From NCBI RefSeq assembly GCF_030733545.1, contig NZ_JASHIU010000005.1, forward strand, positions 62,001-126,000: DNA of 64,000 nucleotides. Reading direction: 5' to 3'. This document shows, piece after piece, positions 18,790 to 33,171 of the stretch (its first letter is position 1; each line of letters starts with the position of its first letter). This DNA comes from Oceanicaulis sp. MMSF_3324. GTDB taxonomy: Bacteria; Pseudomonadota; Alphaproteobacteria; Caulobacterales; Maricaulaceae. The notes under the pieces are model-generated. The model was not told the DNA's origin, did no database searches, and was given only the letters and a program-made list of their open reading frames with translations. The position numbers were made by a program, and so were the translations under genes.

Positions 18790-19725
18790 ATGGCGTTTGT
18801 TGCGGAAACTTTTGAAAGCCCCACCGGCGCCAGCCTGCGCCTGCACGTGCAAGAGGCGGACGGCCAGCCATTGGGCGTGGTCCAGATCCATCATGGTCTC
18901 GCCGAACATTCCGCGCGCTACGCCCGCTTCGCCGCCTATCTCGCCAGCCGCGGCTTTCATGTGGCTGCGCATGACCATCGCGGCCATGGAGAAACCACCG
19001 CCGAGGATGCGCCTCGCGGGGTCTTCGGCGCCCCCAAAGGCTGGAGCAAGGTCGTCGAGGATGCTTTGGCGGTCGAAGACCATCTCAAACAGCGCTTTCC
19101 CGGTCTGCCCCATATCGTCTTCGGCCATTCCATGGGCGGCGTCGTGGCGATGAACCACGCCATGGAACGCAAGGGCGATTTGTCGGGCCTCACGATCTGG
19201 AATTCCAATCTGGCCCTGGGCGGCCGCGCGGGCCTGATGCGCGCAGTGCTCAACATCGAGAGCCTGTTCAAGAAATCACACCAGGGATCGACCTGGATCG
19301 AAGCCCTGACCTTCAAGGCCTGGGGCAAGGCTATCAAGGGCCATCGCACCGATTTTGACTGGCTGTCGCGCCTCCCCGAGGAGGTGGACGCCTATGTCAA
19401 CGATCCCGATTGCGGCTGGCCCGCCTCGATCGCGATGTGGCGCGACCTGATTGACGGCACGGAACTGGGCGAGGACGAGACCCGCCTGCGCAATGTGCGC
19501 TCTGATCTCGCCATTCACCTGGCGGCGGGCGGAGATGATCCCGCCACCGACAAGGGCCAGGCGGCCAAGGTGCTCGCCTCCCGACTGTATAATGCGCGCT
19601 TTTCGGATGTGACCATGCGCCGAGACCCGCAGGGGCGGCATGAAACGCTCAATGATCTCGGCTTTGAAACCGCCCAGTCAGACTTCGCTGACTGGGCCGA
19701 GCGGGTGGCGCGCCAGCAAGGCTAG
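18790..19725 (+). CDS. alpha/beta hydrolase, monoacylglycerol-lipase-like (serine aminopeptidase S33 fold)
   Basis: 311 residues from the ATG at 18790 (GGAG at 18777-18780); a second Met five codons earlier is possible. The nucleophile elbow is GHSMGG (Ser), and the oxyanion-loop HHGLAEHSARYARFA is the signature of the monoacylglycerol lipase/lysophospholipase group. A C-terminal His is in GRHETLND. It probably hydrolyses monoacylglycerols or lysophospholipids to free fatty acid and glycerol. It lies back to back with glpK, which would phosphorylate that glycerol. No signal peptide. The stop overlaps the convergent pentapeptide-repeat gene by CTAG. Confidence 0.82.
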   Translation: MAFVAETFESPTGASLRLHVQEADGQPLGVVQIHHGLAEHSARYARFAAYLASRGFHVAAHDHRGHGETTAEDAPRGVFGAPKGWSKVVEDALAVEDHLKQRFPGLPHIVFGHSMGGVVAMNHAMERKGDLSGLTIWNSNLALGGRAGLMRAVLNIESLFKKSHQGSTWIEALTFKAWGKAIKGHRTDFDWLSRLPEEVDAYVNDPDCGWPASIAMWRDLIDGTELGEDETRLRNVRSDLAIHLAAGGDDPATDKGQAAKVLASRLYNARFSDVTMRRDPQGRHETLNDLGFETAQSDFADWAERVARQQG

Positions 19726-20852
19726 GAGGCCTGTGCCGACGTCAGATCCGTTGTGGCGGCTTCATGGGCCTGAACCGGCCCTATGGCCGCATCCAGCAAT
19801 TCACGATCCAGTCGCGACCCCTCAAACCGGGCGGCGTGCAGGGACGCCCCTTCAAAGGAGGGGTGGAACACCCGGCCCGTGGTCCCCGTGAAAGAGCGCA
19901 AGTCTGCATTCTGGAAGACCGCATGATTGAGCTTGCAGTCGCGGAACGTCACCCCCTGCAGGTTCGCGCCGGTGAAGTTCGCGCCCCGCAGGTCCGCACC
20001 GGTGAAATTCGCGCCCAGCAGAGACGCGCCGGAGAAATCCATTCCCACAGCGCAAACGCCGCGCATATTGGCGCCGATCAGACCCTTCTCCCGACAGCCG
20101 CGGCCCAGCACCCGCAGATCCTCGCCTTCAAACACGGCGCGCTCGCCCTGCTCGCCGCGTGAACGCGTGTAAAGATCGCTACGCTCGACCTGTTCCAGCA
20201 ACGCCGCCGCGCGTTCCTTCGCAGCCGGGTTGGGATCACGCACGACATTGTCCAGGCGGGCGCCATCCAGACGCGTGCCCTGCAGATCCACACCGGTCAG
20301 AACCGCGCCGGCGAAGTTCGCATCACGCAGATCCGCCTGATTGAGCTGCGCGCCCTCCATCATGGCGCCTGAAAAGTCGGCGCCCTTGAGCTTGGCCGAA
20401 CTCAGCCGCGCGCCACGCAGGGAACAATCACGGAAATCCACGATACCGCCCAGCGAGTCTGAATCATTGTCCTGAACCCAATCGGTTTGCTTGAATTCGG
20501 CGTCGCGCTCATCCTTGAACAGAACAGCCTTGCGGAAATCGGCGCCATCAAGATTGGCGCGGTACAGGTCTGCGCCGCGCAAGATCGCGCCGCGCAAATC
20601 GGCGCGCGACAACACAGCGCCTCTCAGATCCGCGCCCTTCAGACTGGAGCAGTAAAACGAGGCGGTCAGCAGGGAGGCCAGGGCAAAGTTCGACTCCTTG
20701 AGATCGCATCCGATGAACTCGATGCTGTCGAGCTTGCGCTTCATCAGGTTGGCGCCGGTCAGGTCCTGGAATCTGAAGAAGGCACGACACCCGCCATTGC
20801 GGCCCGCAATGAACGCTTCGTGGGCCGCAATGACCGCCTGGTCGATGGGCAT
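19722..20852 (-). CDS. pentapeptide-repeat protein
   Basis: 376 residues, most of them A(D/N)LXX-type pentapeptide repeats: one block at ~25-110 (ANLMKR, ADLRGAVLSRADLRGAILRG), a second at ~145-200, and a third at ~265-345 (ADLRGANFTGANLQGVTF). Such repeats form a right-handed square beta-helix. An interruption (~205-255, AKERAAALLEQVERSDLY) breaks the helix with a charged helical stretch. No signal peptide or membrane segment, so cytosolic. Some members protect gyrase (Qnr/MfpA) but the repeats do not identify a function, and the interrupted layout is unlike Qnr. Monocistronic; overlaps the convergent hydrolase gene by 4 bp. Confidence 0.85.
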   Translation of the reverse strand: MPIDQAVIAAHEAFIAGRNGGCRAFFRFQDLTGANLMKRKLDSIEFIGCDLKESNFALASLLTASFYCSSLKGADLRGAVLSRADLRGAILRGADLYRANLDGADFRKAVLFKDERDAEFKQTDWVQDNDSDSLGGIVDFRDCSLRGARLSSAKLKGADFSGAMMEGAQLNQADLRDANFAGAVLTGVDLQGTRLDGARLDNVVRDPNPAAKERAAALLEQVERSDLYTRSRGEQGERAVFEGEDLRVLGRGCREKGLIGANMRGVCAVGMDFSGASLLGANFTGADLRGANFTGANLQGVTFRDCKLNHAVFQNADLRSFTGTTGRVFHPSFEGASLHAARFEGSRLDRELLDAAIGPVQAHEAATTDLTSAQAS

Positions 20853-21007
20853 GCCGGTCTCTCCCGCTACTACCCGTCGAGCGTGGAGATTTGGCCTTAA
20901 AAATCAGTGTTTCACCTGATCGAGTTATACGCACATTCCCACGAAGTGCTTGTCAGTGCGCTGAAAACCGGAAAGTCTGGGCGATCCAGACGATCAGGGA
21001 GACGCGC

Positions 21008-21931
21008 GTGATTGAAACCATTCCCAAGCAGGGCGCTCTGAGCCTTCGCCGATTGCTCGCTCGGCATATGGCGCGCACGGCCGGCAAAAAGGTGATGTCT
21101 CCGGAAAATTCCCGTCAAATTGCGCGTAAGCGCATGGATGCGGGCGCAGACCGCCTGCCGACCCCTGATGATGTCCGCATCCAGAAGACCGAAATCTCCG
21201 GCCTTTCGGCCCTGACCTTCACGCCGGACGAGCGCCGTCCGGGCCTGTTGCTCTTTTTGCATGGCGGCGGGTATTGCCTGGGATCGGCCAAAAGCCATCG
21301 CCCGATTGTCACGCGCCTCGCCAAGGCGCTGCGCATCAATGCGGTCTCCATCGATTATCGCCTGGCGCCCGAGCATGTCTTCCCCTGCGCGGTGGAAGAT
21401 GGAACTGCGGCCCTGAACTGGGCCATGGGCCATAGCGACGGCCCTGTGCTGATCGCAGGCGACAGTGCAGGCGGCGGGCTGACGCTGGCCAGCCTGTTGC
21501 GCCAGCGCGAACAGGGCCGTCCGCTGCCCCAGGGCGCATATCTGATCTCCCCCTTGACGGATCTCACCGTCAGCGGCAACAGCACAAAGACTCGCGCCAA
21601 AGTCGACCCCATGCTCAAGCCGGAATGGCTGTCGGTGGGGGCTCAACTCTATCTGGAGAATACCCCCGCAGAGACGCCGGAAGCCTCACCCCTGTTCGCA
21701 GACCTGACCGGTCTGCCGCCCATGTTCATCCAGACCGGGGATGATGAAATCCTGCTCGATGACTCCATCCGATTCGCCCAGAAGCTCGAACAGGCCGGGG
21801 TGCCGGTCCAGTGCGAAATCTGGAAAGCGCTCTGGCACGACTTCCCGCTTTTCGCTCCGCTCCTACCGGAAGCCGATCAGGCGCTCGAGCGTCTGACGGA
21901 CTGGGCCGAACCGATCCTGTCCGCGGACTAG
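21008..21931 (+). CDS. alpha/beta hydrolase of the hormone-sensitive-lipase family
   Basis: 307 residues from a GTG at 21008, chosen because GGGAG lies 6 bases upstream; an ATG 39 codons earlier has no ribosome site and would add a Cys/Arg-rich sequence unlike the family. HSL-family hallmarks: oxyanion motif HGGGYCLG, nucleophile GDSAGG, YRLAPEH, and the acid and His of the triad in GDDEILLDD and WHDFPLF. Hydrolyses short- or medium-chain esters. It converges on the monooxygenase gene and shares CTAG with it. Its substrate might be an ester made by that monooxygenase, but this is only inference from proximity. Confidence 0.85.
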   Translation: MIETIPKQGALSLRRLLARHMARTAGKKVMSPENSRQIARKRMDAGADRLPTPDDVRIQKTEISGLSALTFTPDERRPGLLLFLHGGGYCLGSAKSHRPIVTRLAKALRINAVSIDYRLAPEHVFPCAVEDGTAALNWAMGHSDGPVLIAGDSAGGGLTLASLLRQREQGRPLPQGAYLISPLTDLTVSGNSTKTRAKVDPMLKPEWLSVGAQLYLENTPAETPEASPLFADLTGLPPMFIQTGDDEILLDDSIRFAQKLEQAGVPVQCEIWKALWHDFPLFAPLLPEADQALERLTDWAEPILSAD

Positions 21932-23403
21932 GCGCGCTCCAGGGCGAAGGCGTCACGGTCCTGCCCCGAGACGGCCCAGGCATATCGGCTGGCGGGGCCG
22001 GACCAGTTGTTGACGATGATCCCGTCCGGGCTCTTGTACCAGGACGGGCAATCGCCCGCCCAGACCGTGCCCTCGAGCCGGTTTTGCAGATCCGCGTTAT
22101 AGGCGGCCTGCGCTTCAGGCCGAACCTCCATGCTTCTGGCGTTCTCGCGGAACAGACGGACGATCTGTCGACGGATGAACTCGGTCTGGCGCTCGATCAT
22201 GAAGATGATCGAGTTGTGCCCGAGATTGGTGTTGGGCCCGTAGAGCGTGAACAGGTTCGGAAAGCCGGTCATCGCCACGCCCTTGTATGCGGTCGGGCTC
22301 TCGCCCCACACCGCGGTCAGGCTTTGTCCATCCCGCCCGATGACATCCAGGCTGGGCAGGAATTCGCTGGCCTTGAAGCCTGTGGCGAGAATGACAAGGT
22401 CGGCCTTGATCTCTTCACCCTGCCCGGTCATGACGCCGTCCGCCGTAAAGCGCCGAACCCCGTCCGTGACCAACTCCACATGCGATTGCCCGAGGGTGGA
22501 GAAAAAGTCGTTCGACAACAGGATGCGCTTACAGCCCGGCGCATAATCGGGCAGAACCTTTTCCAGAAGCGCCGGATCCTGGACCTCGGCCCGGATGCGC
22601 CGGCTCAGTCGGTGACGGGTATAGGCCGCGGCCAACCCGCCAGACCGGAAGGCTGGCCAGCGCGATTCATGCAATGCAAAACTTCCCATGCGGTAGAGCC
22701 AGTGATAGCCGGGCATGTGCCGAAACAGCCATTTCTCCACCGGGGTGAAGGCCCGGTCCGGCTTGGGAATGACCCAGTTGGGCGTGCGCTGGAACACGGT
22801 CAGCTCAGATGCGGCCTTCGCCGCATGGGGCAGGACCTGGATCGCGCTGGCTGCGCTGCCGATCATCACGACACGCTTGCCGGTCATATCGATGTCGGGC
22901 GTCCATTCCCCGGTATGGACTATACGGCCCTTGAAAGCCTCCTGCCCTTCAAAACTGGGCGAGAAAGGCTCTGACAACTGGCCGACGGCGCTGATCACCA
23001 CCCGGGCTTCAAGCTGGGCGCCATCCTCAAACCGGACTTTCCAGAGCCCCACATCCGAATCGTAGATCAGTTCGCGGACAGACCGGCCGTAATGGATATG
23101 CGGGTCAAGGCCGAACTTGACGCTGGCGCGTTCGAAATAGGCCTTGATCTCGCCTTGCGGCGCGAACTTCCGACTCCAGTCGGGATTGGGAAAGAACGAA
23201 TACGAATACAGATGGCTGGGCACGTCGCAGGCCGCGCCAGGATAGGCGTTGGCGCGCCACACCCCGCCCGGCCCGTCCGCACGCTCGGCGATGACCAGGT
23301 TCTCATGACCGGCGCGCTTGAGCTGCCGCCCCATGGCGAGGCCGGACATGCCGGCCCCGATGATCAGAACATCCGTACGGGGCGGCAGATCACTCCTCGT
23401 CAT
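21928..23403 (-). CDS. flavin-containing monooxygenase, Baeyer-Villiger type
   Basis: 491 residues. N-terminal FAD site GAGMSG (16-21); the Baeyer-Villiger fingerprint FxGxxxHxxxW is present as F157, G159, H163 and W167, although the usual following Pro/Asp is Thr; the NADP site is VMIGSAASAIQ shortly after, and ATGF marks the C-terminal FAD segment. Baeyer-Villiger enzymes insert oxygen next to a ketone to give an ester or lactone; related FMOs oxidise N or S. It is the last gene of the branched acyl-CoA operon, overlapping the acyl-CoA synthetase by 14 bp, which suggests its substrate belongs to the same pathway (a terpenoid ketone or aldehyde). Confidence 0.85.
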   Translation of the reverse strand: MTRSDLPPRTDVLIIGAGMSGLAMGRQLKRAGHENLVIAERADGPGGVWRANAYPGAACDVPSHLYSYSFFPNPDWSRKFAPQGEIKAYFERASVKFGLDPHIHYGRSVRELIYDSDVGLWKVRFEDGAQLEARVVISAVGQLSEPFSPSFEGQEAFKGRIVHTGEWTPDIDMTGKRVVMIGSAASAIQVLPHAAKAASELTVFQRTPNWVIPKPDRAFTPVEKWLFRHMPGYHWLYRMGSFALHESRWPAFRSGGLAAAYTRHRLSRRIRAEVQDPALLEKVLPDYAPGCKRILLSNDFFSTLGQSHVELVTDGVRRFTADGVMTGQGEEIKADLVILATGFKASEFLPSLDVIGRDGQSLTAVWGESPTAYKGVAMTGFPNLFTLYGPNTNLGHNSIIFMIERQTEFIRRQIVRLFRENARSMEVRPEAQAAYNADLQNRLEGTVWAGDCPSWYKSPDGIIVNNWSGPASRYAWAVSGQDRDAFALERA

Positions 23404-25225
23404 GGCCTTCAGCGTACATCGCGTCCACCACCGCCTGATTGCGCGCAGTCACCACATTACGCCGCACTTTCAAGGTAGGGGTCAGCTCGCCGGTCTCGAC
23501 GCTCAGCGGTGCATCCAGGACCCGGAACTTGCGGATATTCTCCACCCGCGCATAGCGCTTGTTCACGCCATCCACGGCCGCCTGCAGCTCATCATGCACC
23601 TGCTGGCTCTGGCGCGCCTCGTCGACGCTGAGGCCATGCTTGCGGGCGAACTCGGACAACGCATCCTCGCTCAGCGTGAGCAGCGCGCTGAGATACGGTC
23701 GGGCGTCGCCGACCACCACCGCATGCTCGACCAGGGGTGCGTTCATCAGATCGGTCTCGAGATTGGCGGGCGTGATGTTCTTGCCGCCGGATGTGATGAT
23801 GATGTCCTTGATCCGGCCGGTGATGAAGACGAAGCCGTCCTCGTCGATCCGCACCACATCACCGGTTTTCATCCAGCCATCGCGGGTGAAGGTATTTTCG
23901 GTGGCCTCGTTATTGTTCATGTAGCCGACGAAGACATTCGGGCCACGAACCTGCAGCTCGCCTTCTTCGGACACGCGCGCTTCCATGCCGTCGATCATCT
24001 TGCCGACCGAACCGATCCGCATCATGCCGGGCATGCTAAAGGCGGTCGGGGCGCTGGTTTCGGACTGGCCATAGCCTTCGCAGATCAGAAGATCGAGACC
24101 GGTAAAGAACCACAGCACTTCAGGGCTGATCGGCGCCGCGCCCGAGATCAACAGTCTGGAATCATCCAGCCCCAGCGCCGCCTGCACCTTCTTGATCACC
24201 AGCGCGTTGGCGATGGGCTTTTGCAAGGACAGGAGCGGGTTCGGCGCGCGTCCGTTGAGTTTCGCTTCGTGCCATTTGCGGTTCACGCCCATGGCCCAGT
24301 TCGCGAGCTTGGCCTTGATCTCGGTCGCTTCCGCCAGCCGACCGCGAATGGTTTCGGACATTTTCTCCCAGACCCGCGGCACGCCGAAAAACACGTTCGG
24401 GCGGCAGGCCTGAAGATCATCCGCGAGCGTTTCCATGGATTGGGCGAAATGCATGATCGCGCCGCTCATGACATGGTTGTGCACGCTCGACTGCTGCTCG
24501 GCCACATGGGCGATCGGCAGATAGGACAGCGTGCGGTCGCCGGGCTGGGCCTTGAACATTTCGCTGAGCTTGGCCGCGCTCCAGGAAATATTGCCATGGC
24601 TGAGCATGACCGCCTTGGGCGGGCCTGTGGTGCCGGAGGTGTAGATCAGCGATCCGATCCGGGTCTCGTTGATCGCCTTGAGCCGTTCGCTGACCGCGTC
24701 GCGATGATCCTCGACGCCCAGGGCCATGAATTGCGCCCAGCTGAGCACGTCGGGATGGTCGCCCGCCCCGCCTTCCATGACGATGATGTGCTCGAGTTCG
24801 GGACACTCCGCCTTCAGCTCCAGCGCCTGCTCGACATGCTCGCTGGTTTCCACCAGCAGGACCGGCGCCTTGGAGTGTTGCAGGATATAGGCGACTTCGG
24901 GCGGCGCACTGGTCCAGTAAACGCCGGCCGGTCGACCGCCTGCCATCATCGCCGCAATGGCCATGATGGTCCATTCAGGCCGGTTATAGCCCAGAATGGC
25001 GACCGCCTCGTCTTCACCGAGCCCCAGCGCGATGAGCGCGCGGGCGGCGGTCTGGACCTGCTCGGCGTATTCCGCCCAGCTCGTATAGGCCCAGCCCTCG
25101 CCCAGCCTGACGGCATAAGCCGGGTCCGAACCTCGGGTCTCAGCCTTCTCCAGCAAACGGGCCGGGGTGGACGGATACCAGTTCTCCGCCCCTATGCGGG
25201 GCAAATCACTCGCGCGCGCCTCCAT
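23390..25225 (-). CDS. long-chain/branched acyl-CoA synthetase (AMP-forming; AtuH-like position)
   Basis: 611 residues. ANL-superfamily adenylating enzyme with the P-loop LIYTSGTTGPPKA, the A5-type motif EGYGQSETSA, and the hinge region TGDVVRIDEDGFVFITGR with the catalytic-lysine C-terminal domain after it. Its N-terminal part (SWAEYAEQVQTAARALIALG) and overall length match the FadD15/bubblegum type acting on long or branched acids. It activates a free carboxylic acid to its CoA ester with ATP. In this operon it would be the entry step, as AtuH is proposed to be for citronellic/geranic acid. 23 bp downstream of the BKACE gene. Confidence 0.9.
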   Translation of the reverse strand: MEARASDLPRIGAENWYPSTPARLLEKAETRGSDPAYAVRLGEGWAYTSWAEYAEQVQTAARALIALGLGEDEAVAILGYNRPEWTIMAIAAMMAGGRPAGVYWTSAPPEVAYILQHSKAPVLLVETSEHVEQALELKAECPELEHIIVMEGGAGDHPDVLSWAQFMALGVEDHRDAVSERLKAINETRIGSLIYTSGTTGPPKAVMLSHGNISWSAAKLSEMFKAQPGDRTLSYLPIAHVAEQQSSVHNHVMSGAIMHFAQSMETLADDLQACRPNVFFGVPRVWEKMSETIRGRLAEATEIKAKLANWAMGVNRKWHEAKLNGRAPNPLLSLQKPIANALVIKKVQAALGLDDSRLLISGAAPISPEVLWFFTGLDLLICEGYGQSETSAPTAFSMPGMMRIGSVGKMIDGMEARVSEEGELQVRGPNVFVGYMNNNEATENTFTRDGWMKTGDVVRIDEDGFVFITGRIKDIIITSGGKNITPANLETDLMNAPLVEHAVVVGDARPYLSALLTLSEDALSEFARKHGLSVDEARQSQQVHDELQAAVDGVNKRYARVENIRKFRVLDAPLSVETGELTPTLKVRRNVVTARNQAVVDAMYAEGHDEE

Positions 25226-25248
25226 GCGTCTCCTCCCTATAATACATG

Positions 25249-26130
25249 TCAGGCATGCGCGGTCTCCGCCGCGTTCAGGCCCATGATCTCGCGCGCCTCC
25301 TGCGGCGACGCGATCTCCCGCCCGGCATTGCGGGCGCAGTTCGCCAGAGCCTCGATCAAGGCTCCGTTGCCCGTGGCGCGTTCGCCATCAGGCAGATAGA
25401 AGGTATCCTCAAGTCCGGTGCGAAGCATACCGCCTAAATCGGCGGTGGCCTGATGAACCGGCCAGATTTCCTGACGCCCGATCAGGGTCGTCTGCCAGGG
25501 ATCGCCCTCGCGCTTATAGCCCAGCAAGAGTTTCAGGAGCGCCGCGTCCACCGGCATGCCCGAGGCGACGCCCATCACGAAATTATAATGCGCGGACGGC
25601 GCCATGCCGTTCTCGATATACATGTTCACACAGCGCACGATGCCCACATCAAAGCACTCGAATTCGGGATGTGCGCCCACTTCGGCCATGGCGTCGAGCA
25701 TGGCCTGAACCTTCTCGACGGGGTTGTCGAACATCATGGGCGGCCAGGCCCAGCTGCCGTCGCGCTTGAGCTTGAGATAGTTGAGCGAGCCGGCGTTGCA
25801 GGCCGCGATTTCAGGCTTCACCCGCTTCACGCACGCCGCCGGGCCGGACACGTCAGGCCCCACAACGCCCGTAGTGGAGTTGATGATGACGCCCGGACAG
25901 GCGTCGCGGATCGCATCAATCAGGCTGGCGGCCACGTCCGGGTCCCAGCTCGGGAAATGGCCGTGATCCTCGTCCTGCATCCGGTAATGGACGTGCATGA
26001 CGCTGGCGCCGGCGTCGAACGCCTCTTTCGCGCTCGCGGCCATCTGTTCAGGGGTGACCGGGACCGGATGGGTCTTGGGATTGGTCAGCACGCCATTGAG
26101 CGCGCACGTCAGAACGGCCTTATCCATCAC
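25249..26130 (-). CDS. beta-keto acid cleavage enzyme (BKACE, DUF849 family)
   Basis: 293 residues, TIM-barrel family whose prototype, Kce, condenses a free beta-keto acid with acetyl-CoA to give acetoacetate and a new acyl-CoA. Metal ligands H46 and H48 (VMHVHYR) fall at the same positions as in Kce, and the third ligand/catalytic pair is in GLEDTFY (E241, D242). N-terminal LTCALNG is also typical. The natural substrate of most BKACE members is unknown. Here it replaces AtuG in an atu-like operon, overlapping the biotin carboxylase gene by 11 bp, so its beta-keto acid probably comes from the same pathway (see findings). Confidence 0.9.
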   Translation of the reverse strand: MMDKAVLTCALNGVLTNPKTHPVPVTPEQMAASAKEAFDAGASVMHVHYRMQDEDHGHFPSWDPDVAASLIDAIRDACPGVIINSTTGVVGPDVSGPAACVKRVKPEIAACNAGSLNYLKLKRDGSWAWPPMMFDNPVEKVQAMLDAMAEVGAHPEFECFDVGIVRCVNMYIENGMAPSAHYNFVMGVASGMPVDAALLKLLLGYKREGDPWQTTLIGRQEIWPVHQATADLGGMLRTGLEDTFYLPDGERATGNGALIEALANCARNAGREIASPQEAREIMGLNAAETAHA

Positions 26131-28105
26131 TCTGCTCCTGCGAATTGAGTGTCAGTTCGATCAGAACCGCGCCGTTCGCGGCCTGCGCGCCCGCTCGCGC
26201 GTTGACCGAGGCGATTTCGCCATCAGCCGCGGCGCTCAGGCGCATTTCCATTTTCATCGCTTCCATGACGATCAGCACATCGCCCGCCTTCACCCGGTCG
26301 CCGGGTTTGACGTTGACCGCCACCACGGCGCCGGACACGGGCGCGGTAATCTTGGAGGGATCAGACGCGGCGTCCGCGCCCCAGGGCGAGGCCTCGGCGA
26401 TGACGCTGATCTGGTCACAGAGCGCGATGTGAAGCGCGCCATCCTGGCTGCGCGCCACATGGGCGCGTTGATCCACGCCATTCAGGCGGAAAGCGATCTC
26501 GCCCGGCGCATCCTCATCAAGAAGCTGAACCTGAAACGGCGCCTGATCCTCCCCCACAGCCACGGACACAGCGTTCGGACCGGTCTGCTCGACCCGAACC
26601 GACAAGGCCTCGCCATTGACGATAAGCGGCAGGTCGAAGCGGCTCACCGATCCCGAGCGGATCACGCCCTGAGGCGTCGCCCCCAGAAGGGCCGCGGCCA
26701 GCGCGACCGCCTCATGATCAGGGTCGGGCTTTGCAAACGGGCCGGAGGCGTCTTCAGCCCACAGATCAAGGTCGGCCGTGCAGATCTCGCCCTTGCGGAA
26801 AGGCTCACCGTCCAGCAACGCCAGCAGGAAATCGCGATTGGTCGTCACGCCCAGAAGCGGATCGTTTTTCAGGGCGGCGCGCAGCGAGGCGATGGCCTCG
26901 TCCCGGTTCGCGCCCGTACCGATCACCTTGGACACCATCGCATCATAATCGGTCCCGATCCGGTCGCCCGTCTCGACACCTGCATCCACACGCCCTCCGG
27001 CGTTCGAAACCTCCCCGTCATAGGCCAGGATCAAGCCTGACTGCGGGGCGAACCCGTTGAACGGATCCTCGGCATAGAGCCGCGCCTCGATGGCCCAGCC
27101 CTCAATCGACACATCAGACTGGCTCAACGGCAAAGGCGCGCCGGATGCGATCTCGAATTGCCATTGCACAAGATTGGTCCCGGTCACCTCCTCGGTCACC
27201 GGATGCTCGACCTGGAGCCGGGTATTCATTTCGAGGAAGTAGTACGCCCCGCTCTCATCAAGCAGGAATTCCACCGTGCCCGCGCCCACATAGCCCACAG
27301 CCTTCGCCGCCGCGACAGCGGCCGCGCCCATTGCCTCGCGCAGTTCGGGGGTCACCGCCGGAGACGGTGCTTCCTCGATCACCTTCTGTCGACGCCGCTG
27401 GGCCGAGCAATCGCGCTCGCCCAGATGAATGGCGTTGCCTTGAGCGTCGGCGAAGACCTGGATCTCCACATGATGGCCACGCTCGACGAACTTCTCGATC
27501 AGGACCGCATCATCGCCAAAGGCCGATTTCGCTTCACGGCGGGCCGAGCTGAGCGCCTCTTCAAATGCTGACGCTTCGCGCACAATACGCATGCCGCGAC
27601 CGCCGCCGCCCGCCACCGCCTTGATCAGCAGCGGATAGCCGATCGTGTCGGCCTGGCTCTTGAGATTGGCGTCAGTCTGATCACCCCCCTGCCAGCCCGG
27701 CAGGGTCGGCACCCCGGCCTTGATCATCAGATCCTTGGCCCGCGCCTTGTCTCCCATCGCCTCGATGGCGTCGGGCGGCGGGCCGATCCACACAAGCCCG
27801 GCCTTGGTCACTGCGCGCGCGAAGGCGGCGTTTTCGGACAGGAAGCCATATCCGGGATGGATCGCCTCGGCGCCGGTTTTCTGCGCGGCGTCCAGCACGG
27901 CTTCAATGTTGAGATAGCTCTCGCTCGCCAAGGCCGGGCCTATGCAGACCGACAGATCCGCCTGACGCACATGCAGGGCGTTGGCGTCGGCTTCGGAATA
28001 GACCGCAATGGCGGTTCGACCTGAATCGCGCGCTTCGTTGAGCACACGGACCGCAATCTCGCCCCGATTGGCGACCAGAACGCTGGAAAACGGTTTCGCG
28101 CTCAT
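26120..28105 (-). CDS. acyl-CoA carboxylase alpha subunit: biotin carboxylase + BCCP (AtuF/LiuD-like)
   Basis: 661 residues. Biotin carboxylase domain (~5-450) with the ATP-grasp glycine loop GGGGRGMR and the carboxylase signature FLEMNTRLQVEHPVTE; a linker/BT domain (~455-575); and a biotinyl domain with VMEAMKMEM near residue 620, the Lys being biotinylated. It charges biotin with CO2 for the carboxyltransferase encoded three genes upstream. Family members carboxylate acetyl-, propionyl-, 3-methylcrotonyl- or geranyl-CoA; the domain alone does not decide. Gap of 2 bp to the enoyl-CoA hydratase gene. Confidence 0.92.
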   Translation of the reverse strand: MSAKPFSSVLVANRGEIAVRVLNEARDSGRTAIAVYSEADANALHVRQADLSVCIGPALASESYLNIEAVLDAAQKTGAEAIHPGYGFLSENAAFARAVTKAGLVWIGPPPDAIEAMGDKARAKDLMIKAGVPTLPGWQGGDQTDANLKSQADTIGYPLLIKAVAGGGGRGMRIVREASAFEEALSSARREAKSAFGDDAVLIEKFVERGHHVEIQVFADAQGNAIHLGERDCSAQRRRQKVIEEAPSPAVTPELREAMGAAAVAAAKAVGYVGAGTVEFLLDESGAYYFLEMNTRLQVEHPVTEEVTGTNLVQWQFEIASGAPLPLSQSDVSIEGWAIEARLYAEDPFNGFAPQSGLILAYDGEVSNAGGRVDAGVETGDRIGTDYDAMVSKVIGTGANRDEAIASLRAALKNDPLLGVTTNRDFLLALLDGEPFRKGEICTADLDLWAEDASGPFAKPDPDHEAVALAAALLGATPQGVIRSGSVSRFDLPLIVNGEALSVRVEQTGPNAVSVAVGEDQAPFQVQLLDEDAPGEIAFRLNGVDQRAHVARSQDGALHIALCDQISVIAEASPWGADAASDPSKITAPVSGAVVAVNVKPGDRVKAGDVLIVMEAMKMEMRLSAAADGEIASVNARAGAQAANGAVLIELTLNSQEQSDG

Positions 28106-28107
28106 GC

Positions 28108-28908
28108 TCAGCTCTCCTCGGCCCAGCGGGCAGAACGCTTTTCCAGAAACGCCGTCATCCCTTCCGCCCCCTCGTCTGACCGCGCCGCTTTTGCAAAGGC
28201 CATGGCCGCATCCGCGACCAGGCTCGCGGGCGGCTCGAGCCGCGCCCGGCGCATCAGCGCCTTGGTGGCGGCGATGGCATTCGGTGCGCCCTTGCGGATC
28301 TGGGCGAGCTCGGCTTCCAGAGCCGCATCAAGATCTTCAGTTGGATGCAGGGCATGAATGAGCCCCACCCCGAGCGCCTTGCCCGCGTCGAGCTTGCCGC
28401 CCGTCACAGCCAGACGCCGCGCCTGGGAATAACCCAACCGCTCAACCAGAAACGGCGCGATCTGGGCGGGCACAATCCCCAGCCCGGTTTCCGGCAGGCG
28501 GAACACCGCCGTATCGGCCCCCAGCACCACGTCGGCCACACAGGCGAGACCGAAACCGCCGCCCATGACCGCGCCCTCAACCACCGCCACCACTGGCAGG
28601 CCCGTATTGGCATAGGCCACGCACAATTCGCCAAAGCGGGCGTTCACCGCCGCAATCGGGTCATGGTCATCAGTGACGGGTTGGCCCTGGGCCGCGCCCA
28701 TATCCTTGATGTCACCGCCCGAGCAGAAATGTCCGCCTGCCCCGCGCAAGACAATGGCGCGATCACCCGCCTGTTCCGCGTCAGCCAGCGCCGCGATCAG
28801 CTCGTCCACCATTTCAAGCGACATGGCGTTACGCAGCTCGGGCCGGTTCAGCGTGACATGCAGAACCCGCGCGCGGCGCTCGACCAGAAGGGTCTGCGGA
28901 GCGGACAT
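28108..28908 (-). CDS. enoyl-CoA hydratase (AtuE/LiuC-like)
   Basis: 266 residues, crotonase fold. The oxyanion-hole segments are HFCSGGDIKDM (~60-70) and VMGGGFGLACVAD (~112-125); the PETGLGIVPAQIAPF segment lies where the catalytic Glu region is found. It would hydrate the double bond of a 3-substituted glutaconyl-CoA made by the carboxylase: methylglutaconyl-CoA in leucine breakdown (LiuC) or isohexenylglutaconyl-CoA in terpene breakdown (AtuE). The order after an acyl-CoA dehydrogenase and before the biotin carboxylase is that of both atu and liu clusters. 2-bp gaps on both sides. Confidence 0.88.
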   Translation of the reverse strand: MSAPQTLLVERRARVLHVTLNRPELRNAMSLEMVDELIAALADAEQAGDRAIVLRGAGGHFCSGGDIKDMGAAQGQPVTDDHDPIAAVNARFGELCVAYANTGLPVVAVVEGAVMGGGFGLACVADVVLGADTAVFRLPETGLGIVPAQIAPFLVERLGYSQARRLAVTGGKLDAGKALGVGLIHALHPTEDLDAALEAELAQIRKGAPNAIAATKALMRRARLEPPASLVADAAMAFAKAARSDEGAEGMTAFLEKRSARWAEES

Positions 28909-28910
28909 GA

Positions 28911-30080
<1,170 letters not shown>

Positions 30081-30110
30081 TCTCGTCTCCTCCCGGACCG
30101 GGCCACGTCT

Positions 30111-31721
30111 TTAGAACCGCGCGACTCCGAAGGTGTTGGGGTTGAGCTGGCGGTCGTCCGCTTCAGCACAGGTGTTCAGGCATTCGATCAGCACCGCGCG
30201 GGTGTCGCGCGGGTCGATAATTCCGTCATCCCAGAGCCGCGCCGTCGCAAACAGCGCCTGGCTTTGCTCATCGAGACTCTGGGTGATCATGGCGGTCATT
30301 TGTGCGAGCGCCTCTTCGTCGGTCTCGACGCCGGCGCGCGCATTCTTGCCGCGGGTGACGATCTCCATGACCTTGGCGGCCTGCGCCCCACCCATCACGG
30401 CGGTGCGGGCGGTGGGCCAGGCGAAGATGAACCGCGGATCAAACCCGCGCCCGCACATGCCGTAATTGCCCGCGCCAAAGCTGCCGCCCAGAACAATGGT
30501 GATCTTGGGCACGCGCGCATTGGCCACGGCCTGGATCATTTTCGAGCCATGCTTGACCGCGCCGGCGCGCTCCGCCGCCGAGCCCACCATGTAGCCGGTG
30601 GTGTTCTGCAGGAAGACGATCGGCGTGCCCGACTGGTCGCATAGCTGGATGAACTGGCCCGCCTTGGTCGAGCCCTCAGGCTGGATCGGGCCGTTATTGC
30701 CGATGATGCCGACGATCTGGTTGCCGATACGCGCATGGCCGCACACGGTCTCCGCGCCATAGCGCGCCTTGAACTCCAGAAAGTCCGAGCCGTCGACGAC
30801 GCGCGCAATCACATCCTTGACGTCATAGGGCGTGCGATCATCCGCGGGCACCACGCCCATCAGCTCTTCCGCGTCATAAAGCGGCGCATCCCCCGCGACG
30901 GGCGAACGCGCTGCGGACCAGTTGAGCTTGTCCATGATCTCGCGCGCATAAGCGAGCGCCTGGGCGTCATCCTCGGCGACATATTCGCCAAGTCCGGTCA
31001 CCTCGCCATGCAGGTCCGCGCCGCCGAGGCTCTCATCATCGGCGTCTTCACCAATGGCGGCTTTGACGAGCGGCGGTCCGGCGAGGAAGATTTTCGACTT
31101 CTCGCGTACCAGCACGACATAGTCGCTCATCCCCGGCAGATAGGCGCCGCCCGCCGTCGAGCTGCCGTGCACCACCGCGATCTGGGGAATGCCCGCCGCG
31201 CTCAGACGCGCCTGATTGGCGAAGCTGCGCCCGCCATCCACAAAGATTTCCGCCTGATACAGAAGGTTCGCGCCGCCCGATTCCACCAGATGGATCATGG
31301 GCAGCTTGTTCTCGAGCGCGATTTCCTGGGCGCGCAGGGATTTCTTCAACCCCATGGGCGCGACCGTGCCGCCCTTGATAGCGCTGTCAGAGGCCGCGAT
31401 CACGCAGCGCTTGCCCGCCACCACGCCGATGCCGACCACCGCGCCGCCGCCAGACGCGCCGCGTTCGCCGTCATCATCATGCATTTTCAGACCGGCCAGA
31501 GGCGCGATCTCGAGGAAGGGCGCATCCCGATCCACCAGGCGCGCCACGCGTTCGCGCGGCAGCAGCTGGCCACGCTCTTCAAAGCGGGCCTTCTTGGCGG
31601 CGGAATTTTTGCGCACCTGCTCTTCAGCGCTGCGCACGCTGACGAGCTTTTCATTCATGGCGGCCTGGGCCGCCTTGAACTCGTCCGATCCCGGATTGAG
31701 GCGATTGGGCAGGACGCTCAT
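30111..31721 (-). CDS. acyl-CoA carboxylase beta subunit, carboxyltransferase (AtuC/LiuB-like)
   Basis: 536 residues, the length of methylcrotonyl-CoA and geranyl-CoA carboxylase beta subunits, with both crotonase-like halves: N-half with VHGSSTAGGAY (oxyanion, ~184-194) and IFLAGPPLVKAA; C-half with LQNTTGYMVG and GGSFGAGNYGMCGR. It moves CO2 from biotin to the gamma-methyl carbon of a 3-methyl-enoyl-CoA. From memory of Pseudomonas methylcrotonyl-CoA carboxylase, its Phe-Phe-Asn-Gln segment is Phe-Ala-Asn-Gln here (A168) and a nearby VPAM is LPGM, both making the pocket larger, which favours a long acyl chain. Overlaps the SDR gene by 4 bp. Confidence 0.92.
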   Translation of the reverse strand: MSVLPNRLNPGSDEFKAAQAAMNEKLVSVRSAEEQVRKNSAAKKARFEERGQLLPRERVARLVDRDAPFLEIAPLAGLKMHDDDGERGASGGGAVVGIGVVAGKRCVIAASDSAIKGGTVAPMGLKKSLRAQEIALENKLPMIHLVESGGANLLYQAEIFVDGGRSFANQARLSAAGIPQIAVVHGSSTAGGAYLPGMSDYVVLVREKSKIFLAGPPLVKAAIGEDADDESLGGADLHGEVTGLGEYVAEDDAQALAYAREIMDKLNWSAARSPVAGDAPLYDAEELMGVVPADDRTPYDVKDVIARVVDGSDFLEFKARYGAETVCGHARIGNQIVGIIGNNGPIQPEGSTKAGQFIQLCDQSGTPIVFLQNTTGYMVGSAAERAGAVKHGSKMIQAVANARVPKITIVLGGSFGAGNYGMCGRGFDPRFIFAWPTARTAVMGGAQAAKVMEIVTRGKNARAGVETDEEALAQMTAMITQSLDEQSQALFATARLWDDGIIDPRDTRAVLIECLNTCAEADDRQLNPNTFGVARF

Positions 31722-32617
31722 GTCTCCGCTCCCTCGCCGCGCAAGACGGCAGGATCAACCGCACGGTGGAAGCCGTTGAAGACCTCCGAATTCTCATGCG
31801 GGGTGAGCGGGAAGTGTCGCTCGCCCAGAGGCGCGCCGCCATCCACCTGAAGCTGGACTCCGGTTATGAAGGCCGCGCCCGGCGACAGCAGATAGGTCAC
31901 CGCCGCCGACACTTCAGCTTCGGACCCCATACGCTGGGCGGGCAGGTTCTGCTTGAGCATGGGGATGATGGCGCGGAAAGCGCCGCCATAGGTATCCATT
32001 CCCGAGCTGGCGATCCAGCCCGGCGCGACGGCGTTCACGCGCACGCCCTTGGGCGCCCATTCAAAGGCGAGGGTCTTGGTCAGATTTTCCATCCCCGCCC
32101 GGGCTGCGCCCGAATGGGCCATGCCCGGCATGCCATGATGCATGTCGGCGGTGATGTTGACGATGGCGCCGCCATGTTCGGCCATGGACGCCTTGAAGAC
32201 CTCGCGGCTGACCAGGAATCCGCCGGTCAGGTTGGTGGCGATGACCGCATCCCAACCCTTCTTGGAGATGTCCTCGGCATTGGCGGGGAATTGTCCGCCG
32301 GCATTGTTCACAAGGCCATGGATGCGTCCGTGACGCTCAACCATGGCGGCGATCGCCGCGCTGACCGCCTCTTCATCGCGAATGTCAAAGCTCGCGGTTT
32401 CACACGAACCGCCATCGCTGCCGATCTCTTCCGCAACAGCGTCGAGCTTGTCCTGCTTGCGTCCCGCCAGAATGGCGTGAGCGCCCAGAGCGGTCAGCTC
32501 ATGGGCGATGCAGCGGCCAATGCCCGAGCCGCCACCGGTGACAAGGATGACCTGTCCCTTGAACAGGTCATCGCGAAACACGCTGTCATAGCGGGCGTGT
32601 GCGGCGTTATCGCTCAT
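31718..32617 (-). CDS. SDR-family reductase, 2,4-dienoyl-CoA-reductase-like (AtuB position)
   Basis: 299 residues from the ATG at 32617, which has GGAGGAG upstream; a longer frame to 32725 would run through the MerR operator. The Rossmann site TGGGSGIG and NNAG are intact, but the catalytic Tyr-xxx-Lys is not: the segment reads MAHSGAARAGMENLTKTLA, giving Ser and Arg at those places. This pattern resembles the peroxisomal 2,4-dienoyl-CoA reductase branch (HAGxAKA...). So it may reduce an unsaturated acyl-CoA rather than oxidise an alcohol. First gene of the operon; overlaps the carboxyltransferase by 4 bp and diverges from the MerR gene. Confidence 0.85.
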   Translation of the reverse strand: MSDNAAHARYDSVFRDDLFKGQVILVTGGGSGIGRCIAHELTALGAHAILAGRKQDKLDAVAEEIGSDGGSCETASFDIRDEEAVSAAIAAMVERHGRIHGLVNNAGGQFPANAEDISKKGWDAVIATNLTGGFLVSREVFKASMAEHGGAIVNITADMHHGMPGMAHSGAARAGMENLTKTLAFEWAPKGVRVNAVAPGWIASSGMDTYGGAFRAIIPMLKQNLPAQRMGSEAEVSAAVTYLLSPGAAFITGVQLQVDGGAPLGERHFPLTPHENSEVFNGFHRAVDPAVLRGEGAET

Positions 32618-32683
32618 CGTGCGCCCGTCTCCTCCCTGACTGGTCCGGTCTTTGTCCGCCGGTATGAGAGGAGCTTCGCAGGG

Positions 32684-32701
32684 CTTAACGTATACGTCAA
32701 G
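32684..32701. promoter_or_regulatory. MerR-type operator between SDR operon and merR
   Basis: CTTAACGTATACGTCAAG is an 18-bp near-perfect palindrome (one mismatched pair), lying 66 bp upstream of the SDR start and 56 bp upstream of the regulator start. The TTGACG half on the minus strand could serve as a -35 element for the catabolic operon, the usual place for MerR-family operators. Most likely bound by the divergent MerR protein. Confidence 0.7.
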
Positions 32702-32757
32702 CGCATCTTGTTTGCGGAAACGCATCAGCGTATGAAGGGGTGAACAAGGACACGCTC

Positions 32758-33171
32758 ATGACCCACGCGCCCGACACCCAGACCCAAAGCGCCCTCTATG
32801 GCATCGCCGAACTGGCGGATGCGTTCGGCATCACGACGCGGACAATCCGGTTTTACGAAGACAAGGGGCTGTTAAAGCCCCAGCGCGTCGGCGGCCAAAG
32901 GGTCTACACCGAGGCAGACAAGACGCGCCTGAAACTGATCCTGCGCGCCAAGACTATCGGCACCAAGCTCAGCGATATCAAGACCTTCCTAGAGCTCTAT
33001 GGCCAGGAAGGCGAAGGCCGCGTGCGCCAGCTCCAGTTCGTCATCGACATGACAGCCAAGGAAATCGATCGGCTGGAAGAAAAGAAGGCCGAGATCGAGA
33101 CCACGCTCAACGAATTGCGCGTGATCCATGAAGGCTCCAAAGAGCGGCTGGCCAAGCGCAAGCCCGAATAG
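32758..33171 (+). CDS. MerR-family regulator (LiuR-like) of the branched acyl-CoA operon
   Basis: 137 residues from the ATG at 32758, chosen over a GTG 18 bases earlier because AAGGA lies 7 bases in front of it. N-terminal winged helix (YGIAELADAFGITTRTIRFY, EDKGLLKPQR), then a coiled-coil dimerisation helix (~80-125) and a short charged C-terminus without metal-binding Cys. This is the layout of LiuR-type MerR proteins that control branched-chain acyl-CoA catabolism, probably sensing an acyl-CoA. Divergent from the operon with a shared palindrome. Note that Pseudomonas atu genes use the TetR-type AtuR instead. Confidence 0.88.
   Translation: MTHAPDTQTQSALYGIAELADAFGITTRTIRFYEDKGLLKPQRVGGQRVYTEADKTRLKLILRAKTIGTKLSDIKTFLELYGQEGEGRVRQLQFVIDMTAKEIDRLEEKKAEIETTLNELRVIHEGSKERLAKRKPE

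What the first reader, a model, noticed from the sequence alone, without database searches (positions are those of the whole stretch)
21928..33171. Atu-like operon for a 3-methyl-branched acid with a BKACE in place of the usual SDR
Gene order SDR, carboxyltransferase, acyl-CoA dehydrogenase, enoyl-CoA hydratase, biotin carboxylase, X, acyl-CoA synthetase equals atuB-C-D-E-F-G-H of the Pseudomonas citronellol/geraniol pathway, with X a BKACE (DUF849) instead of the AtuG SDR. In the known route the hydrated product must undergo an HMG-CoA-lyase-like cleavage. If that gives acetyl-CoA plus a free beta-keto acid (7-methyl-3-oxo-6-octenoate for geranyl-CoA), a BKACE could take it with acetyl-CoA to acetoacetate and 5-methyl-4-hexenoyl-CoA, removing the need for CoA activation and thiolysis. 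No HMG-CoA-lyase gene is in the operon. This would assign a natural substrate class to a mostly uncharacterised enzyme family.
Basis: partly seen in the sequence, partly recalled or inferred. Interest (0 to 1): 0.72.

Follow-up and report, generated by a model that had tools for sequence, protein, structure and literature searches.

The report
Terpenoid-acid operon with swapped cleavage enzyme
A marine bacterium carries a variant of the known bacterial operon for breaking down terpene-like branched acids, in which a beta-keto acid cleavage enzyme appears to stand in for a poorly understood protein called AtuA, which gives both proteins a testable job.

Summary
The operon is real, at the stated coordinates, in an Oceanicaulis-like genome. 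Its carboxylase is of the geranyl-CoA type (Gly, no 3-residue insert); a separate methylcrotonyl-CoA carboxylase and a lone HMG-CoA lyase lie elsewhere. The BKACE belongs to a tight subfamily that follows this carboxylase: in an even draw of 398 Pseudomonadota genomes it occurs in 16, all among the 43 with a geranyl-type carboxylase, and in 15 it lies beside that gene.

At 44 carboxylase sites BKACE is adjacent in 15, AtuA in 21, neither in 8, both in none. Full-length AtuA occurs in 1 of 15 BKACE-type genomes and 27 of 28 others. In L145 and L058, BKACE sits in AtuA's slot of an otherwise normal operon that keeps AtuG. Independent swaps are few (five pairs).

Most likely the lyase step leaves acetyl-CoA and a free beta-keto acid, and BKACE turns the two into acetoacetate and the shortened acyl-CoA. 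This is inferred; no activity was tested. Two BKACE-type genomes listed as complete lack any HMG-CoA lyase, so BKACE may do more. The substrate is unknown.

The parts
32740..33171 (+). MerR-family regulator, divergent from the operon; likely start ATG 32758 (inferred)
   Evidence: Pfam MerR_1/MerR-DNA-bind; MerR beside the operon in Maricaulaceae- and Burkholderiales-type loci; a Bradyrhizobium-type locus has an AraC-type gene instead
32685..32700 (.). Putative operator, palindrome TTAACGTATACGTCAA
   Evidence: TTGACGTWWACGTCAA with at most 2 mismatches in 21 of 29 MerR-operon intergenic stretches, 0 of 1450 mononucleotide shuffles; only such match in the 64-kb window
31718..32725 (-). SDR oxidoreductase, AtuB-like; likely true start 32617
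   Evidence: adh_short_C2; 56-63% to the SDR beside AtuA in 14 of 15 AtuA-type loci that showed one, 53% in L167; 56-60%
30111..31721 (-). Geranyl-CoA-type carboxyltransferase (beta subunit, AtuC-like)
   Evidence: Best PDB match 5ikl GCC beta 716 bits vs MCC beta 544; GCC signature Gly and no 3-residue insert
28911..30080 (-). Acyl-CoA dehydrogenase, AtuD-like
   Evidence: Pfam; 64-68% to the dehydrogenase of canonical AtuA-type loci
28108..28908 (-). Enoyl-CoA hydratase, AtuE-like
   Evidence: PDB 4k3w 252 bits (no specific name), 4zu2 (AtuE) 225 bits, next 131
26120..28105 (-). Biotin carboxylase/BCCP (alpha subunit, AtuF position)
   Evidence: Biotin_carb_N/C, CPSase_L_D2, Biotin_lipoyl; by itself it does not tell GCC from MCC
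25249..26130 (-). Beta-keto acid cleavage enzyme of the carboxylase-linked subfamily; likely start 26127; overlaps the end of the biotin carboxylase gene
   Evidence: PF05853 272 bits; catalytic residues conserved; model pLDDT 86.9, nearest PDB folds 3no5 and KCE 2y7f
23390..25225 (-). AMP-binding acyl-CoA synthetase (AtuH position)
   Evidence: AMP-binding, E 7.9e-67
21928..23403 (-). Baeyer-Villiger-type flavin monooxygenase, last gene; in the 80 loci its cluster is found only in L002-L013
   Evidence: Best PDB matches steroid and phenylacetone monooxygenases; FxGxxxHxxxW at residue 157 (motif recalled); 12 loci
20891..21931 (+). Alpha/beta hydrolase (Abhydrolase_3), convergent; possible esterase for a BVMO product
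   Evidence: PF07859; beside the monooxygenase in all 12 loci L002-L013 by tblastn

Best explanation
This is a variant acyclic-terpenoid (Atu-type) operon for removing the beta-methyl branch of a 3-methyl-branched, probably isoprenoid, acid. The synthetase makes the CoA ester, the dehydrogenase makes the 3-methyl-2-enoyl-CoA, the geranyl-type carboxylase adds CO2 to the gamma-methyl, and the hydratase gives 3-hydroxy-3-R-glutaryl-CoA. An HMG-CoA-lyase-type cleavage (enzyme encoded elsewhere) would leave acetyl-CoA plus a free beta-keto acid R-CO-CH2-COOH, with CoA on the wrong fragment. BKACE uses exactly these two products: R-CO-CH2-COOH + acetyl-CoA -> R-CO-SCoA + acetoacetate. The shortened chain is thus re-loaded without ATP. 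In other lineages AtuA fills the same stage by an unknown reaction. Gene content, family identity and AtuA/BKACE complementarity are shown here. The reactions, the lyase products and the natural substrate are inferred.
For: Geranyl-type Gly in 106 of 107 locus carboxyltransferases, and no MCC insert in 107 of 107 (rule from PMC4673880). Own MCC set and HMG-CoA lyase elsewhere. BKACE subfamily in 16 of 398 genomes, all within the 43 with this carboxylase, 15 adjacent (naive Fisher 1.9e-17). Beside the carboxylase: AtuA 21, BKACE 15, neither 8, both 0; AtuA in 0 of 81 BKACE loci by tblastn. BKACE in the AtuA slot with AtuG kept in L145 and L058. All 96 aligned subfamily rows keep the residues at KCE H46, H48, R226, E230 and D231 (KCE numbering and roles recalled), KCE Glu14 is Leu in 96 of 96, and a WAWPPM insert is conserved. 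HMG-CoA lyase over cut-off in 75 of 78 BKACE-locus genomes and 39 of 43 carboxylase genomes. Other BKACEs accept hydrophobic beta-keto acids such as beta-ketohexanoate (PMC4922564, PMC11961710, passages).
Against: Four BKACE-operon genomes lack any HMG-CoA lyase: G082 and G137 (listed completeness 100, as is every genome shown in that list) and the MAGs G032 and G034; all their PF00682 hits have frames of 543 aa or more. G077 is just under the cut-off. So the lyase in trans is not universal. [quoted passage not shown]), not acetyl-CoA plus free acid. The AtuA/BKACE pattern rests on few independent changes: 5 independent pairs, opposite in 4.8 of 5 on average with genome-wide AtuA (median sign-test p 0.0625), and only 2.3 of 5 informative with adjacency. 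Exceptions: G189 has BKACE at the carboxylase and AtuA elsewhere; G200 has both genes, on other contigs. L073 has BKACE with no carboxyltransferase in 20 kb. The biotin carboxylase subunit is not specific: in 8 Pseudomonas-type loci, and in L145, L161 and L163, the genome's MCC alpha is the better query. No activity data.
Confidence: 0.6

Rival explanations
1. BKACE itself cleaves 3-hydroxy-3-R-glutaryl-CoA: its Zn site does the retro-aldol and then the CoA transfer, so the net reaction is hydroxyglutaryl-CoA -> acetoacetate + acyl-CoA and no HMG-CoA lyase is needed.
For: BKACE-type genomes G082, G137 (and MAGs G032, G034) have no ~300-aa HMG-CoA lyase. BKACE replaces AtuA, which one paper names as the acetate lyase (PMC4847356). 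Minimal loci keep CT and BKACE together (L045, L164).
Against: Known BKACE chemistry is transfer between a beta-keto acid and acetyl-CoA, not retro-aldol. Most BKACE-locus genomes do have the lyase (75 of 78). Two genomes with AtuA (G156 beside the carboxylase, G192 on another contig) lack it too, so its absence is not BKACE-specific.
Confidence: 0.17
2. BKACE works on another beta-keto acid of the same catabolic regulon (a later beta-oxidation product or acetoacetate recycling) and is linked to the carboxylase by co-regulation only.
For: The exact substrate is unknown; BKACEs are promiscuous (PMC4922564); loci carry different extra genes.
Against: The carboxyltransferase-BKACE pair persists where the other genes are not beside it (L045, L164). 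The subfamily was not found in any of the 355 sampled genomes without the carboxylase. The complementarity with AtuA would then be unexplained.
Confidence: 0.15
3. It is a leucine/isovalerate (liu) operon with BKACE in place of LiuE.
For: MerR regulator as in liu operons (liuR as MerR is recalled); similar enzyme set; the biotin carboxylase subunit alone does not tell the two apart.
Against: Carboxyltransferase lacks the MCC Phe and insert. A separate MCC set and an HMG-CoA lyase exist in the genome. The nearest specifically named hydratase in the PDB is AtuE.
Confidence: 0.04

Closest known systems
Acyclic terpene utilization operon atuABCDEFGH of Pseudomonas
   Same: SDR, carboxyltransferase, acyl-CoA dehydrogenase, hydratase and biotin carboxylase in the same order; identities to the canonical AtuA-type loci of the sample (those with SDR, L126-L143) about 56-63, 57-60, 64-68, 46-55 and 45-49%; synthetase present; geranyl-type selectivity site.
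   Different: No AtuA in operon or genome; no AtuG ortholog in the window (best 28%); BKACE present; MerR with a palindromic operator instead of the TetR-type AtuR (AtuR as TetR recalled); BVMO and esterase neighbours.
BKACE/DUF849 family (KCE of lysine fermentation, BKACE15 of Paracoccus denitrificans)
   Same: TIM-barrel fold; Zn and catalytic residues conserved.
   Different: 21-31% identity to solved members. Leu at the KCE Glu14 position, a conserved WAWPPM insert, and linkage to geranyl-type carboxylases.
Leucine/isovalerate utilization (liu) operon
   Same: Parallel chemistry; MerR regulator (recalled for liuR).
   Different: MCC signature absent; no HMG-CoA lyase in the operon; a separate MCC set exists in this genome.

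Membership tests
Atu (geranyl-CoA) pathway operon | Geranyl-type carboxyltransferase: Gly at the selectivity site, no 3-residue insert, N-terminal extension | tested here: met
   the match to GCC beta begins at residue 7
Atu (geranyl-CoA) pathway operon | AtuB-C-D-E-F gene order | tested here: met
Atu (geranyl-CoA) pathway operon | AtuA (PF07287) present | tested here: not met
   None in the genome; none in 81 BKACE loci
Atu (geranyl-CoA) pathway operon | AtuG SDR present | tested here: not met
   No ortholog in the window, best 26-28%; kept in BKACE loci L145 and L058
Atu (geranyl-CoA) pathway operon | Growth on citronellol or geranic acid; geranyl-CoA carboxylation | not testable with these tools
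BKACE (PF05853) | Family score, TIM barrel, Zn ligands and catalytic Arg/Asp | tested here: met
   (residue roles recalled)
BKACE (PF05853) | Acetyl-CoA-dependent cleavage of a beta-keto acid to acetoacetate and acyl-CoA | not testable with these tools
   No assay
KCE (3-keto-5-aminohexanoate cleavage enzyme) | Glu14 for the substrate amino group (role recalled); NCBIfam equivalog cut-off | tested here: not met
   Leu15 in 96 of 96 rows; 177 bits vs cut-off 382
Liu (MCC) operon | MCC Phe plus 3-residue insert; HMG-CoA lyase in operon | tested here: not met

The most novel reading that the evidence does not exclude
The carboxylase-linked BKACE and AtuA (DUF1446) are two unrelated enzymes that each complete the cleavage of 3-hydroxy-3-alkylglutaryl-CoA without a separate HMG-CoA lyase. 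BKACE would do retro-aldol cleavage and CoA transfer in one Zn site, giving acetoacetate plus shortened acyl-CoA. AtuA would release acetate plus 3-oxoacyl-CoA, which would account for the reported acetate product.
Probability: 0.17. Interest if true: 0.8.

Novelty: new variant of a known kind. Interest (0 to 1): 0.64.

Why it matters
Removal of beta-methyl branches is a key step in bacterial breakdown of terpenoid and isoprenoid acids. Which enzyme follows the hydratase, and where the CoA goes, is unsettled: the two papers whose passages I saw name LiuE (PMC4097962) or AtuA (PMC4847356). Repeated exchange of AtuA for a BKACE of predictable chemistry suggests that AtuA acts at the same stage. 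It also gives a natural substrate class to one BKACE subfamily, and makes both testable by one complementation and one in vitro assay.

Tried and rejected
Liu/MCC operon: rejected on the carboxyltransferase signature and the separate MCC set. PCC: rejected, best match is GCC beta. Biotin carboxylase subunit as a marker: given up, it does not separate GCC from MCC. BKACE as the counterpart of AtuG: rejected. Absence of HMG-CoA lyase as a hallmark: rejected, 0 of 43 sampled loci have it by tblastn with the genome's own lyase. AtuA fold: no PDB relative, no NCBIfam family, no relative confirmed in viral contigs, so no structural hint. Plasmid search: one record at the strict limit used, Haematobacter, with the same carboxylase-BKACE set. 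Literature, in the held open library only: 19 papers hold DUF849 or BKACE (several plainly unrelated); 0 hold KCE with citronellol; 1 holds KCE with terpene, a cattle microbiome paper seen as a listing; 0 hold beta-keto acid cleavage with MCC; 2 hold AtuA with citronellol; DUF1446 or Atu listing. I saw no mention of the BKACE-AtuA link in these listings and passages. The primary BKACE family paper (Bastard 2014) was not read.
Full report
What is there. The window lies in a 2.98-Mb genome whose nearest named relative by the BKACE gene is Oceanicaulis sp. HTCC2633 (98% over the gene). The operon runs on the - strand as SDR, carboxyltransferase (CT), acyl-CoA dehydrogenase, enoyl-CoA hydratase, biotin carboxylase, BKACE, acyl-CoA synthetase, Baeyer-Villiger-type monooxygenase, with a divergent MerR gene. 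A palindrome of the form TTGACGTWWACGTCAA lies between MerR and the likely SDR start. It occurs with at most 2 mismatches in 21 of 29 such intergenic stretches and in 0 of 1450 mononucleotide shuffles. Of the eight misses (L002, L004, L008, L013, L016, L024, L026, L040), three (L002, L004, L008) were stretches cut short by my extraction (68-105 bases).

The carboxylase. CT matches geranyl-CoA carboxylase beta (5ikl) at 716 bits and MCC beta at 544. The GCC paper (PMC4673880, parts 1 and 2 of 4 read) gives Gly and absence of a 3-residue insert as the GCC marks. The window CT has both, and the genome's own MCC has Phe and the insert. Of 107 CTs from related loci, 106 have Gly (L167 has Ser) and 107 lack the insert. 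One further CT hit, L042, was dropped as a 154-residue fragment. The hydratase matches 4k3w at 252 bits and AtuE (4zu2) at 225, with the next entry at 131. The biotin carboxylase subunit does not discriminate: its best PDB matches are MCC alpha chains, and in 8 Pseudomonas-type loci and in L145, L161 and L163 the genome's own MCC alpha is a better query than the window gene. The genome also has a separate MCC set and a lone HMG-CoA lyase.

BKACE follows this carboxylase. The related-locus search found 262 relatives and kept the best 80. Of these 80, 64 hold CT, 8 hold only the biotin carboxylase and 8 neither; 7 of the last 8 end early at contig ends. Of the 50 with about 10 kb on both sides, 49 hold CT; the exception is L073. 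That set was chosen by BKACE, so I used an even draw of Pseudomonadota: 43 of 398 genomes have a GCC-like CT (44 places, E <= 1e-165). The BKACE subfamily (E <= 1e-60) occurs in 16 of the same 398. All 16 are among the 43, 15 beside CT and 1 (G200) on another contig.

BKACE and AtuA are alternatives. In the 43 genomes AtuA (PF07287) and BKACE (PF05853) were sought, and 43 regions of up to 20 kb were fetched and re-searched. Beside the 44 CTs (own included): BKACE 15, AtuA 21, neither 8, both 0. Two of the eight 'neither' lie at contig ends or on a short contig (L141, L144); seven of the eight are in genomes with full-length AtuA elsewhere or at another site, all but G217. Full-length AtuA anywhere in the genome: 1 of 15 BKACE-type (G189; G295 and G413 have only fragments of 32-34 bits), 27 of 28 others (not G217). 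Naive Fisher tests give 2.4e-6 (adjacency) and 2.8e-9 (genome-wide), but relatedness matters. The CT tree of this sample needs at least 4 AtuA/BKACE changes; a 44-row quick tree with added BKACE-chosen loci needs 5, for example L142 (AtuA) and L062 (BKACE) as sisters. The sample tree warns that two long branches, L146 and L167, meet, so their place is unsure. There are five independent pairs; with genome-wide AtuA they go opposite in 4.8 of 5 on average, median p 0.0625. With adjacency alone about 2.3 of 5 pairs differ in AtuA, all opposite, so that test has little power. In L145 (G396) the order is BKACE, AtuB, C, D, E, F, AtuG (AtuG 61-63% to Pseudomonas-type), and L058 is alike: BKACE occupies AtuA's place and AtuG stays. 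AtuG-like genes (45% identity or more over 200 residues, within the fetched stretch) occur in 10 of 21 AtuA loci and 1 of 14 BKACE loci of the sample, and in 5 of 81 of the BKACE set. BKACE and CT trees are not fully congruent: L045 and L164 fall with rhizobial loci in the BKACE tree (support 92/89, not starred), while the CT of L164 falls beside three AtuA loci.

Mechanism. All 96 subfamily rows aligned (those over 55% identity and 250 bits) keep the residues at KCE positions H46, H48, R226, E230 and D231. KCE Glu14, recalled as binding the substrate's amino group, is Leu in all. A WAWPPM insert is conserved (KCE numbering recalled). An AlphaFold model (mean pLDDT 86.9) matches 3no5 and KCE best. 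Established BKACE chemistry is beta-keto acid + acetyl-CoA -> acyl-CoA + acetoacetate (PMC4922564 and PMC11961710, passages). An HMG-CoA-lyase-type cleavage of the hydrated intermediate would yield exactly these two substrates (recalled chemistry). [quoted passage not shown]). I infer that AtuA and BKACE solve the same problem, CoA on the wrong fragment, in different ways.

The lyase question. By tblastn with the genome's own lyase (E <= 1e-8) none lies in the 81 BKACE loci or the 43 sampled loci. It is encoded elsewhere, over cut-off, in 75 of 78 BKACE-locus genomes (L029 and L064 not held) and 39 of 43 carboxylase genomes. Missing: G082 and G137 (BKACE type), G156 (AtuA beside CT), G192 (AtuA on another contig), and the MAGs G032 and G034; G077 is just below cut-off. 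In the first six, every PF00682 hit has a frame of 437 aa or more. This is against a strict need for the lyase and keeps open that BKACE, and AtuA, cleave the intermediate themselves. Completeness is listed as 100 for every genome shown, so that figure is coarse. DUF1446 also sits beside the methylaspartate genes (PMC4682846, one passage), a pathway recalled to end in acetate and pyruvate from a tertiary-alcohol dicarboxylate.

Substrate. Unknown. The geranyl-type pocket and apolar BKACE site favour isoprenoid chains. SCP2-domain genes beside 17 BKACE loci (cluster; three members scanned) and BVMO plus Abhydrolase_3 in L002-L013 would fit longer or ketone-derived isoprenoids such as phytol products, but nothing here decides it.

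Verdict. It is a new variant of a known pathway.

Noticed in passing
L050:8071-8724, L163:14443-15081 (GST-like); L045:9182-9997, L164:10564-11400 (MDMPI-like): Thiol-dependent isomerase-like proteins (GST_N in L050 and L163, mycothiol maleylpyruvate isomerase domain in L045; L164 not scanned) sit beside CT-BKACE; the GST-like cluster is in 31 loci. Candidates for the trans-to-cis 2-enoyl-CoA isomerase, since GCC is described as taking the cis isomer.
   Followed up: partly
L014:3695-3991, L016:2919-3269, L034:5863-6141: SCP-2 sterol-transfer domain genes; their cluster is in 17 BKACE loci, mostly next to MerR, hinting at long or branched acyl substrates.
   Followed up: partly
G082, G137, G032, G034, G156, G192: Geranyl-type carboxylase genomes without any HMG-CoA lyase of about 300 aa.
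   Followed up: partly
L034 and L181 (G032): Operon shows no AtuE-like hydratase or biotin carboxylase between the dehydrogenase and BKACE, although an MCC set exists elsewhere (L180).
   Followed up: partly
L073: Oleiphilus MAG with the BKACE subfamily but no carboxyltransferase in 20 kb.
   Followed up: no
window 19722-20852: 376-aa pentapeptide-repeat protein; similar to several pentapeptide families but below every NCBIfam cut-off listed.
   Followed up: no
Enterobacterial methylaspartate gene clusters (PMC4682846): DUF1446, the AtuA family, of unknown function, next to methylaspartate ammonia-lyase; may share an acetate-releasing role with AtuA.
   Followed up: no
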